A stretch of 34,074 nt of DNA, taken from positions 1 through 34,074 of the forward strand of contig JAIXPV010000610.1 of the NCBI GenBank assembly GCA_027486105.1, written 5' to 3'. A program made the translations under genes and the position numbers. Source of the DNA: Runella sp. Lineage in GTDB: Bacteria > Bacteroidota > Bacteroidia > Cytophagales > Spirosomataceae. This document shows, one piece after another, positions 19,328-22,632 of this stretch (positions within the stretch are counted from its first letter, which is position 1; the number at the start of each line of letters is the position of its first letter). The notes below the pieces were generated by a model. It did not search any database. It was not told the origin of the DNA and worked only from the letters and a program-made list of their open reading frames with translations.

Positions 19328-19795
19328 TTAAAACGTAATCTGTACTTGTGCCTTCGCAATGTCGGTATAGGCAAAAGGCAATTCAGCAGGAACTTGGTCT
19401 TTTTTCTTCTTTTTCAATTCTTCAAGTATCACAAAGCCTTCTTCGTCTGCCGAAATTAATTTCCCTTTTTTCTCAACCCCGTCTTTGGCGATTACTCTTA
19501 AAGTACGTCCAATATTTTTACGAAACTGCCTTGGCATAGCCAAGGGATAATCCACTCCTGGAGAGGATACCTCAAGCGTATACGCATCGGGTAATACTTC
19601 TTGTGTTTCGAGCATTTCTCCTAATTTCCAGCTAATTTCGGCACATTCATCGATGCTGATGCCTGCATCGCTGTCAATCAACACCGTTACTTTCTGCCGA
19701 ACTTTTGAGGCTGAGACCTGCACTTCTACGATGAAAAATTTGTCATCCTCCAAAAGGGTAGAAAGCAATTCGACAATTTTTTCCTTTACATTCAT
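19328..19795 (-). CDS. rimP: Ribosome maturation factor RimP
   Basis: IDECAEISWKLGEMLETQEVLPDAYTLEVSSPGVDYPL. The track starts at a TTG (19822); the ATG at 19795 (MNVKEKIVELL) is preferred. Confidence 0.93.
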   Translation of the reverse strand: MNVKEKIVELLSTLLEDDKFFIVEVQVSASKVRQKVTVLIDSDAGISIDECAEISWKLGEMLETQEVLPDAYTLEVSSPGVDYPLAMPRQFRKNIGRTLRVIAKDGVEKKGKLISADEEGFVILEELKKKKKDQVPAELPFAYTDIAKAQVQITF

Positions 19796-19811
19796 TTTTT
19801 TCCAACAAAAA

Positions 19812-19830
19812 AGGGGAATCAATTTCCCCT
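19812..19830 (-). terminator. Terminator-like hairpin in the rimP-nusA-infB leader
   Basis: Minus strand AGGGGAA-ATTGA-TTCCCCT followed by TTTTTG, ending about 17 nt before the rimP ATG (19795). Confidence 0.65.
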
Positions 19831-19908: not shown

Positions 19909-21180
19909 ATGTTACAGCATGTTGTCGTGTATGAATACGGTATAGTTCGACGCGCTTCCGAGGCAGCGGGAAGTACCCATAACACTCAAAACACGGAGGT
20001 ATTTGTTTCAGACCAGACTTTCGACCTCCTCAAACAGTGGGCTTTTGTCCCCCGGGCCGATGCTGTAATTCGTTTTTTTGTGCACAAAGGCAAAGAGTGC
20101 CTCCGCTTCAAAAATTACACGGGCATTTTACAAACATCCGATGGTACTCAATTTGAGATTTTACCGAAAATAACCAAAAACGATACTGTCTTTACAGCAC
20201 GGCAGAGTCTACTGAAAATGCTCCGCAGTGTGACTGACCTTCCATTTTTCCAACTTTCTCAAGCACATCTACGACAGGCTGAGCAGCCGCTCTGGGAGAT
20301 TTTTATTTCGGCTTTTATTCAAGAAGTGGAGCAAATTATGCAACAGGGATTGGAACGGGCTTACCAAACCATCGAGACCGAACAAACGTTTGTACGGGGA
20401 AAATGGCTACCACACCGCCAAAATGCCCTTCATCCTGAATGGCTGTTTACCGCCAATGACGAATTTAACTCCGATGTCCTGCCCAATCGCCTGCTAAAAA
20501 CCTGCGTGTTGTTTTTAGGCAAGCGTAGTCAATATTTGCCCAATCAGGTTCGCCTCCGGCAATTACGTTTTGCATTGGAAGAAGTCAATACCTCCACGCA
20601 GGTAAACGCTGATTTTGCAAAATTAGAAAAATTAGACCGACGTTTTAACCGATATGCCCAAGCCTTGGCCTGGGCCAAAGTGTTGCTCAATCAACGTTCA
20701 TGGGCCACGGCAGGAAAAGACGTGAATGACTCGTTGTTGTTTCCGACCGAACGGCTATTTGAAAATTATGTAGCCCGTGGCACCAAACGTTATTTAGGCA
20801 ACCATGAGGTATCTTATCAAGATGATTTGCATTTTTTGGTCGATGACCATTCTGGCAAGCGCCGCTTTCGTTTGCGCCCCGACTTGGTGATTCGCAAAGA
20901 CCACCAAACCGTGGTGATGGATATGAAGTGGAAATGGATTGAACCCACCCTCCCTAATTATGGTATAGAACAGGCCGATTTGTATCAATTATACGCTTAT
21001 GGGCGCAAATACAACGCCAATGCGCTATTTTTGGTTTATCCTGCTCATGAAGATTTTCGGGCACCGCTTCCCCCTTTTCGTTTTGAAGAACAATTAATTT
21101 TAACGGTTATCCCTTTTGATATAACGGCATCATTATCGTCAGAAATAGAAAAGATGGAAAATTATTTGGGGATTAAGTAG
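19909..21180 (+). CDS. mcrC: McrC-family 5-methylcytosine restriction component (PD-(D/E)XK nuclease)
   Basis: KECLRFKNYTGILQTSDGTQFEILPKI; LLKMLRSVTDLPFFQLSQAHLR; LPNRLLKTCVLFL; FPTERLFENYVARGTKRY; nuclease core RLRPDLVIRKDHQTVVMDMKWKWI (D...DxK). Confidence 0.85.
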   Translation: MLQHVVVYEYGIVRRASEAAGSTHNTQNTEVFVSDQTFDLLKQWAFVPRADAVIRFFVHKGKECLRFKNYTGILQTSDGTQFEILPKITKNDTVFTARQSLLKMLRSVTDLPFFQLSQAHLRQAEQPLWEIFISAFIQEVEQIMQQGLERAYQTIETEQTFVRGKWLPHRQNALHPEWLFTANDEFNSDVLPNRLLKTCVLFLGKRSQYLPNQVRLRQLRFALEEVNTSTQVNADFAKLEKLDRRFNRYAQALAWAKVLLNQRSWATAGKDVNDSLLFPTERLFENYVARGTKRYLGNHEVSYQDDLHFLVDDHSGKRRFRLRPDLVIRKDHQTVVMDMKWKWIEPTLPNYGIEQADLYQLYAYGRKYNANALFLVYPAHEDFRAPLPPFRFEEQLILTVIPFDITASLSSEIEKMENYLGIK

Positions 21181-21184
21181 AAGA

Positions 21185-21228
21185 AAAAAGCCGGTCAATC
21201 TCATAATAAACTGACCGACTTTGATTTT
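21185..21228. terminator. Bidirectional terminator between convergent mcrC and lpdA
   Basis: aaaaaagccggtcaatctcataataaactgaccgactttgatttttt: CGGTCA/TGACCG core and flanking AAAG/CTTT with A/T tracts on both sides. Confidence 0.75.
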
Positions 21229-22632
21229 TTAGGCATTCAATGCTCGGTTGCCCGTGGCCGCCAAACAAGCCTCTTTGAAAGCTTCCGTATAGGTGGGGTG
21301 CGCGTGCGACATGCGACTCACGTCTTCGGCCGAGGCGCGGTATTCCATGGCTACCACTGCTTCTGCAATCATATCAGCAGCACGTGGGCCAATGATATGC
21401 GCGCCCAGAATTTCATCTGTTTCTTTATGGGCCAATACTTTTACCGTCCCATCAATGTCCATACTTGCACGGGCGCGGCCAAGGGCTTTAAACGGAAACG
21501 AACCTGTTTTATAGGCAATTCCTTTGGCTTTTAATTCATCTTCCGTATAACCTACTCCTGCCACTTCAGGCCATGTATAAACTACATTTGGAATAAGAAG
21601 GTAATTGATATGTGGTTTTTGTCCAACGATGGTTTCGGCCACAAACACGCCTTCTTCCTCGGCTTTATGGGCCAACATCGCCCCGCGAATCACGTCACCA
21701 ATAGCGTAGATATTAGGAACTTTGGTTTGAAGCGTATGTTCATCTACTTCGATTTTTCCACGTTGGTCGGTGGCAAGGCCCGCATTTTCAAGCGCGAGTC
21801 CGTCGGTATAGGGTTTACGTCCCACGCTCATCAGGCAGTAATCACCCGTAAAAGTAACGAGTTCACCTTTAGGGTTCTCAGCTGTTACGATAACCTCATC
21901 ACCCGTATTTTCCACGGTTTTTACTTTGTGACTAAAATAGAAATCAGCACCGAGTTTTTTTACCGTCCGCTGAAGTTCTTTGCCCATGGTAGCGTCCATG
22001 GTAGGAATCATGGCCGAAGCATATTCCACAAAGCTTACTTTAGCCCCAATACGTGCATACACCGAGCCAAGCTCTGCCCCAATCACTCCTGCCCCAATCA
22101 CGATGAGGTGTTTGGGGATTTCGTTGAGTTGAAGCGCTTCGGTCGAAGTAATGATACGTTTTTTGTCAATCGTCACACCTGGCAACGACGAAGGCTTTGA
22201 GCCCGTAGCGATGACGATATTTTTGGAGGTAATCATTTCAATGTCTCCGCCTTCTTTGGTCACCTTTACGGTATTTTTATCTACAAATGAGCCAAGGCCC
22301 TGATAGACATCAATTTTGTTTTTCTTCATCAAAAACTCGACGCCTTTGCACACTTGACTAACTACCTCACTCTTGCGGGCAATCATTTGGGCCAAATCTA
22401 CTTTTAGGTTTTCGAGCTGAATGCCGTGTTCGGCAAACGTATACGAAGCATTATAGTAGTGCTCAGAAGAATCGAGCAATGCTTTGGAAGGAATACACCC
22501 TACGTTTAGGCAGGTTCCTCCAAGGGTTTTATATTTTTCGATGATGGCCGTTTTTAAGCCTAACTGCGCGCAACGAATGGCGCAAATATAGCCACCTGGC
22601 CCCGAACCGATTACGATAACGTCGTATTGCAT
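21229..22632 (-). CDS. lpdA: Dihydrolipoyl dehydrogenase (E3)
   Basis: VIGSGPGGYICAIRCAQLGLKTAIIEKYKTLGGTCLNVGCIPSKALLDSSE redox disulfide; C-terminal MSHAHPTYTEAFKEACLAA. Confidence 0.97.
   Translation of the reverse strand: MQYDVIVIGSGPGGYICAIRCAQLGLKTAIIEKYKTLGGTCLNVGCIPSKALLDSSEHYYNASYTFAEHGIQLENLKVDLAQMIARKSEVVSQVCKGVEFLMKKNKIDVYQGLGSFVDKNTVKVTKEGGDIEMITSKNIVIATGSKPSSLPGVTIDKKRIITSTEALQLNEIPKHLIVIGAGVIGAELGSVYARIGAKVSFVEYASAMIPTMDATMGKELQRTVKKLGADFYFSHKVKTVENTGDEVIVTAENPKGELVTFTGDYCLMSVGRKPYTDGLALENAGLATDQRGKIEVDEHTLQTKVPNIYAIGDVIRGAMLAHKAEEEGVFVAETIVGQKPHINYLLIPNVVYTWPEVAGVGYTEDELKAKGIAYKTGSFPFKALGRARASMDIDGTVKVLAHKETDEILGAHIIGPRAADMIAEAVVAMEYRASAEDVSRMSHAHPTYTEAFKEACLAATGNRALNA

What the first reader, a model, noticed from the sequence alone, without database searches (positions are those of the whole stretch)
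19909..21180. Solitary McrC-type nuclease inserted between rimP and lpdA, with no McrB partner in the window
Seen: an intact 423-aa McrC-like ORF with a conserved-looking nuclease core (RLRPDLVIRKDHQTVVMDMKWK). It is the only plus-strand gene in a long stretch of minus-strand housekeeping genes and has its own downstream terminator. Established: in classical McrBC type IV restriction, McrC is the PD-(D/E)XK subunit and depends on the McrB AAA+ GTPase, normally encoded next to it. Inference: either McrB is elsewhere in the genome, the locus is a remnant, or this belongs to a lineage of stand-alone McrC proteins with another partner or role.
Basis: partly seen in the sequence, partly recalled or inferred. 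Interest (0 to 1): 0.6.

Follow-up and report, generated by a model that had tools for sequence, protein, structure and literature searches.

The report
McrBC restriction enzyme encoded in halves
The apparently lone DNA-cutting protein McrC in this Runella genome does have its motor partner McrB, but the two genes, normally side by side, lie far apart on the chromosome (about 2 million bases in close relatives), and across the bacterial family they are nevertheless kept, and at least once lost, together.

Summary
Observation confirmed: an intact 423-aa McrC (PF10117, 257 bits; nuclease residues invariant in 70 orthologues) lies between rimP and lpdA, in all 13 Runella genomes. It is neither a remnant (dN/dS 0.10-0.17) nor partnerless. 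The same genome encodes one orthologous McrB (signature MNSADRS) on another contig (C494:12508-14094, minus); in complete Runella relatives the genes are 1.9-2.5 Mb apart. Of 151 family genomes, 70 carry this McrC, 68 of them also this McrB, none McrB alone; the genes are adjacent in only one. Separation runs from 4-bp overlap through 4 kb and 16-190 kb to over 3 Mb. In one sublineage mcrC is a pseudogene in intact synteny and mcrB has vanished from its own site. McrB and McrC trees agree on the main clades. In other Bacteroidota families 25/25 testable McrCs have McrB adjacent; a second unlinked clade occurs elsewhere in Cytophagales. Best reading: a cognate McrBC (type IV-like, GTP-driven nuclease) whose operon was dismantled but whose subunits still act together in trans, vertically inherited. 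Defence is inferred; the target and the McrB N-terminal domain are unknown. New variant of a known kind.

The parts
19909..21180 (+). mcrC: 423-aa McrC-family PD-(D/E)XK nuclease and GTPase-activating subunit; nuclease residues D325, D338, K340; R244 aligns with the McrB-activating Arg263 of T. gammatolerans McrC. Its partner mcrB lies outside the window, at G000:C494:12508-14094 (minus strand)
21187..21222 (.). 15-pair stem with T/A runs between the convergent mcrC and lpdA genes; possible shared bidirectional terminator (weak evidence)
19328..19822 (-). rimP (ORF; likely ATG start at about 19795), the divergently transcribed upstream neighbour that marks the fixed site in Runella
21229..22632 (-). 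lpdA (dihydrolipoyl dehydrogenase), the convergent downstream neighbour that marks the site

Best explanation
The gene is the nuclease half of a two-subunit McrBC system whose operon has been dismantled. Its motor half, mcrB, is at G000:C494:12508-14094 (minus strand; locus L132). Shown: both genes are intact and under purifying selection, kept together in 68 of 70 family genomes, with the main clades of their trees in agreement although they are unlinked. Inferred from the solved relatives: McrB hexamers hydrolyse GTP and move on nucleic acid; McrC docks in the ring, its R244 repositions the Asn of the McrB NxxD motif to stimulate GTP hydrolysis, and its PD-(D/E)XK domain cuts the DNA selected by the N-terminal reader domain of McrB. 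Inferred: the subunits meet in trans after independent expression, the system is chromosomal and vertically inherited rather than a mobile defence cassette, and its most likely job is still type IV-like restriction of modified foreign DNA.
For: McrB in the own genome: 53% identity to the mcrB adjacent to mcrC in the nearest out-genus relative G018; it alone of the eight best AAA_5 loci has the McrB signature MNxxDR. Family of 151 genomes: mcrC orthologue in 70, mcrB orthologue in 68, mcrB without mcrC in 0; Fisher 3e-41, not corrected for phylogeny. The two exceptions are a fragmented genome (G009, 570 contigs) and an incomplete one (G025, 82%, in which the infB marker is missing too). Distances from 4-bp overlap (G018) via 3.7-13 kb and 16-190 kb to 0.76-3.5 Mb, with shared neighbours (dehydrogenase gene after mcrB; gntP after mcrC) tying the steps together. 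Co-loss: in G083, G127 and G131 mcrC is a stop-ridden fragment in intact synteny; mcrB is absent from its own syntenic site in G083 and G131, and no mcrB orthologue is found in G127. Trees: the Spirosomataceae clade is one group in both McrC and McrB trees, and so is the f5/f14/f22 clade, with the same linked sister families in both. Invariant catalytic residues in both; R244 in 60/70; dN/dS 0.10-0.17 for mcrC and 0.04-0.11 for mcrB in the close pairs; predicted folds match solved McrB and McrC. Control: 25/25 testable non-Spirosomataceae McrCs in a phylum sample have McrB adjacent; four of four plasmid relatives read have an adjacent AAA ATPase gene.
Against: No physical interaction, expression or activity is shown. 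McrB-McrC distance correlation beyond the species signal is weak (partial r 0.13, 137 of 2000 permutations as high), so co-inheritance is shown better than co-evolution of an interface. Co-occurrence counts related genomes; the number of independent events is far smaller, and the decay in g28 is one event. R244 is not universal (10 of 70 lack it, possibly by misalignment). McrB's N-terminal domain matches no Pfam or PDB family, so modified-DNA targeting is an assumption. The own genome is a draft at 84% completeness in 788 contigs, so the distance in this very genome is unknown.
Confidence: 0.8

Rival explanations
1. Stand-alone McrC: the nuclease acts without McrB, alone or with another partner, and McrB is a bystander.
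For: No adjacent partner in 69 of 70 genomes; PADLOC finds no defence model in it; G009 keeps mcrC without a detectable mcrB.
Against: 68/70 co-retention, joint decay in one clade, concordant trees, retention of the McrB-activating arginine in 60/70. No other gene is a constant neighbour of either gene across genera.
Confidence: 0.07
2. Degenerate remnant of an mcrBC operon after loss of mcrB.
For: Relatives with the linked pair exist (G018, G203); true remnants of this gene exist in G083, G127 and G131.
Against: Intact ORF and catalytic residues in all 13 Runella genomes, dN/dS 0.10-0.17, partner present elsewhere.
Confidence: 0.02
3. Domesticated McrBC: the split pair has left defence and serves a core cellular function (DNA or RNA processing, chromosome maintenance), with defence as past history. 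The subunits still work together.
For: Fixed in the genus between housekeeping genes, vertically inherited, not in a defence island, unlinked for long evolutionary time. Precedent: PcdA of S. aureus is an McrB-family protein recruited to cell division (PMC10602043), although it lost its motor motifs.
Against: mcrC and the McrB N-terminus evolve fast (mean distances 1.1 and 1.3 against 0.26 for InfB), as defence genes often do; the pair can be lost (g28 clade) and is absent from many family members.
Confidence: 0.2
4. The McrB on contig C494 belongs to a different system and the true partner of McrC is undetected.
For: The own genome is 84% complete; in Runella mcrB overlaps a downstream VWA-CoxE gene, which could be its partner.
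Against: The orthologous McrB is adjacent to the orthologous McrC in G018; in genomes with two systems (G188, G006) the split pair and the linked pair fall in matching clades of both trees; the VWA gene is not next to mcrB outside Runella.
Confidence: 0.05

Closest known systems
Escherichia coli K-12 McrBC (type IV, 5-methylcytosine-dependent)
   Same: Two subunits: AAA+ GTPase with NxxD signature and PD-(D/E)XK McrC; predicted McrC fold matches E. coli McrC (6ut6_G, 6hz4_M)
   Different: E. coli genes form one operon; the McrB N-terminal domain here shows no match to DUF3578/ADAM or any other Pfam family; both proteins score far below the NCBIfam equivalog cut-offs
Thermococcus gammatolerans McrBC
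   Same: Closest solved relative of both subunits; Arg263 of TgMcrC aligns with R244 here
   Different: No sequence match between its N-terminal DNA-binding domain and the one here; treated in the literature as an ordinary McrBC pair (PMC7680126)
McrBC census and CoCoNuTs (PMC11090510)
   Same: Same GTPase and McrC families; the census allows occasional intervening genes and orphans annotated by hand
   Different: Describes McrBC as single-operon systems and validates by neighbourhood pairing; pairs megabases apart are not described in the passages read. Our McrB has NxxD, not the NxD motif of the CoCoNuT-containing branch
PcdA of Staphylococcus aureus (PMC10602043)
   Same: McrB-family protein fixed in a lineage, without an adjacent McrC gene
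   Different: PcdA has degraded motor motifs and no McrC; here both subunits are intact and kept together

Membership tests
McrBC two-subunit nuclease (McrC subunit) | McrC/PF10117 homology over the full domain | tested here: met
   256.7 bits, model 1-318 of 318; fold match to 6ut7_G, TM 0.72
McrBC two-subunit nuclease (McrC subunit) | Intact PD-(D/E)XK nuclease residues | tested here: met
   P324, D325, D338, K340 in 70/70 orthologues
McrBC two-subunit nuclease (McrC subunit) | Basic finger residue that activates McrB GTPase (Tg Arg263 / Ec Lys157) | tested here: met
   R244 aligns to Arg263 (counted by hand in the alignment); R in 60/70 orthologues
McrBC two-subunit nuclease (McrB subunit) | AAA+ domain with Walker A/B and MNxxDRS signature | tested here: met
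   GPPGTGK, IDEINR, MNSADRS; key residues invariant in 53/53; PRK11331 McrB 2.9e-33
McrBC two-subunit nuclease | mcrB and mcrC in one operon (typical organisation) | tested here: not met
   Different contigs in G000; 2.4-2.5 Mb apart in G004 and G005. An organisational, not a biochemical, criterion
McrBC two-subunit nuclease | Physical complex and McrC-stimulated GTPase | not testable with these tools
   needs purified proteins
Type IV restriction system | Modification-dependent cleavage, with an N-terminal domain that reads modified bases | tested here: inconclusive
   The N-terminal domain is conserved (N63, W130, H150, N151 invariant) but matches no Pfam or PDB family; cleavage not testable
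CoCoNuT | NxD signature motif of the GTPase | tested here: not met
   Signature is NxxD, MNSADRS
Mobile defence cassette | Patchy, horizontally transferred, next to mobility or defence genes | tested here: not met
   13/13 Runella, fixed site between rimP and lpdA, distances follow a species marker

The most novel reading that the evidence does not exclude
The dismantled McrBC of Cytophagales is a domesticated cellular machine: a GTP-driven nuclease whose two subunits were separated on the chromosome and placed under separate control, serving genome or transcript maintenance rather than (or besides) phage restriction, and arising at least twice in the order.
Probability: 0.2. Interest if true: 0.8.

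Novelty: new variant of a known kind. Interest (0 to 1): 0.55.

Why it matters
McrBC systems are described as tightly linked, often mobile operons (PMC2614495, PMC11090510). A lineage in which the two subunits are unlinked, vertically inherited and still kept and lost together shows that a GTP-driven, potentially self-harming nuclease can become a near-core chromosomal function. It also gives a natural series of operon break-up from 4-bp overlap to megabases, and warns that neighbourhood-based searches will miss such pairs or label them orphans (no McrC or McrB model of PADLOC matched here).

Tried and rejected
Remnant hypothesis: rejected by selection and conservation. Stand-alone lineage: rejected as the main reading by co-retention and co-loss. 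Test of McrB-McrC co-evolution beyond the species tree: not significant. Search for a remnant of mcrB in G083 by tblastn and blastn: only chance matches. A 60-aa N-terminal McrB probe in G009, G025, G083, G127, G131: nothing above chance. Identity of the McrB N-terminal domain: no Pfam or PDB hit; the fold search was dominated by the AAA+ domain. A constant third gene next to mcrB or mcrC across genera: none; the GntP permease gene beside mcrC and the zinc-type dehydrogenase gene beside mcrB only mark shared ancestry of position. Literature search for solitary or unlinked McrC: no description found in the held library. Rfam: no RNA family in the window.

Full report
What was seen. The window is one whole contig (C402) of a draft genome (G000, 6.03 Mb, 788 contigs, 84% complete). 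ORF 19909-21180 encodes a 423-aa McrC that matches only PF10117, over the whole model. Its predicted structure (mean pLDDT 87) is closest to solved McrC subunits. Neighbours are nusA and rimP, then mcrC on the other strand, lpdA and a 2-oxoacid dehydrogenase E2 gene. The genus is Runella (Spirosomataceae, Cytophagales): the two named relatives carrying the gene are Runella aurantiaca YX9 and Runella sp. CRIBMP, whose contig lengths equal those of G001:C13 and G007:C53.

The gene is fixed, not a recent insertion. All 13 Runella genomes have it. In 12 the order nusA-rimP-mcrC-lpdA is seen; in G009 the contig piece read ends before lpdA. Between close species dN/dS is 0.10-0.17 for mcrC, higher than for lpdA (about 0.01) but clearly purifying.

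McrB is present. McrC genes 37% or more identical occur in many other genera of the family without an adjacent mcrB, but the nearest out-genus relative, G018, has mcrB and mcrC overlapping by 4 bp. That McrB finds an orthologue in the window's own genome at C494:12508-14094, minus strand, 528 aa, 53% identical. It carries GPPGTGK, IDEINR and the McrB signature MNSADRS; of the eight best AAA_5 loci of the genome only this one has the MNxxDR motif. Its predicted fold and its profile match solved McrB.

Retention without linkage. In 151 family genomes 70 have the mcrC orthologue (E below 1e-65; the next group of whole genes starts at 4e-28), 68 of these the mcrB orthologue, none mcrB alone (Fisher 3e-41, uncorrected for kinship). 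G025 lacks mcrB but also lacks infB; G009 is in 570 contigs. On shared contigs the pair overlaps in G018; the gap is 3.7-13 kb in G113, G090, G059 and G080; 16-190 kb in twelve genomes; and 0.76-3.5 Mb in thirteen, among them Runella G004 (2.41 Mb), G005 (2.49 Mb) and G006 (1.85 Mb). In g17/g27 genomes a dehydrogenase gene follows mcrB and a GntP permease gene follows mcrC within one segment; in g5 genomes the same two neighbours are found, but far apart. This reads as insertion into the operon followed by rearrangement (inference). Runella uses other sites for both genes and its sister G018 is linked, so Runella probably separated independently, or G018 regained linkage.

Co-loss. In genus g28, G083, G127 and G131 form one clade beside G122, which has both genes. 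In all three mcrC is a short fragment with frameshifts or stops between intact neighbours. At the syntenic mcrB site, roughly 12 kb away in G083, mcrB is gone and another ORF stands there; the same holds in G131. G127 has no mcrB orthologue (its site was not read). One event, but two separate loci decayed together.

Phylogeny. A McrC tree (77 rows) and a McrB tree (70 rows, AAA+ part) both show the Spirosomataceae pair as one clade with G018 next to Runella, and a second clade of unlinked genes in families f5, f14 and f22, sister in both trees to the same linked genes of f26, f27, f43 and f52. Matrix correlations are 0.80 (split, Spirosomataceae), 0.85 (split, others) and 0.65 (linked), each above all 2000 permutations. 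Within Spirosomataceae both genes follow the species marker infB; the correlation beyond it is weak (partial r 0.13). So shared inheritance is shown, interface co-evolution is not.

How unusual. In a phylum sample all 25 testable McrC genes outside Spirosomataceae have an adjacent McrB; one more sits at a contig edge. The four plasmid relatives read are also AAA ATPase-McrC operons. In other Cytophagales families about 16 genomes carry solitary McrC and solitary McrB; in the single-contig genome G154 they lie at 8.25 and 4.55 Mb. For most of these only about 1.3 kb on each side was read, so moderate distances are not excluded, and these genomes were picked because they looked unlinked.

Mechanism. 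From the solved complexes (PMC7680126), McrC inserts a finger into the McrB hexamer and a conserved Arg/Lys repositions the Asn of the NxxD motif. R244 of this McrC aligns with that Arg. Both active sites are invariant. The simplest reading is that the two proteins still form the McrBC complex after separate expression. What it cuts is open: the N-terminal domain of McrB (about residues 5-172, alpha/beta) has no match in Pfam or PDB and, among the McrBs compared outside the family, is shared only with those of G270 and G321.

Literature. McrB and McrC are described as tightly linked and often mobile (PMC2614495) and as a single operon with occasional intervening genes (PMC11090510). No description of unlinked, co-retained pairs was found in the held library; most subscription papers are not in it.

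Verdict. Not a stand-alone McrC and not a remnant: a dismantled but co-retained McrBC. It is a new variant of a known kind by gene organisation and inheritance, not by known biochemistry.

Noticed in passing
L132:11367-12518 (G000:C494): In Runella a VWA-CoxE gene (PF05762) starts inside the 3' end of mcrB (about 11-bp overlap) and follows it in most species; CoxE-type VWA proteins usually pair with MoxR-type AAA+ proteins, so it could be an accessory of the Runella McrB. Not seen next to mcrB in G005 or outside the genus.
   Followed up: partly
L132:13549-14094 (McrB residues 1-182): The N-terminal domain of this McrB lineage (invariant N63, W130, H150, N151) matches no Pfam or PDB family: a candidate new reader domain.
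   Followed up: partly
G154:C1 8245970 and 4546903; also G173, G194, G202, G215, G227, G241, G245, G281, G179, G299: A second, more distant clade of unlinked McrC and McrB in families f5, f14 and f22 of the same order, sister to linked genes of other families in both trees.
   Followed up: partly
L142, L143, L152, L170: Some mcrB orthologues (G010, G002, G049, G030) are 660-690 aa, with an extra stretch of roughly 100-150 aa between the N-terminal domain and the AAA+ domain.
   Followed up: no
L099 (G006:C2): Runella G006 carries, besides the split pair, an ordinary adjacent mcrBC pair on a second, 93-kb contig.
   Followed up: partly
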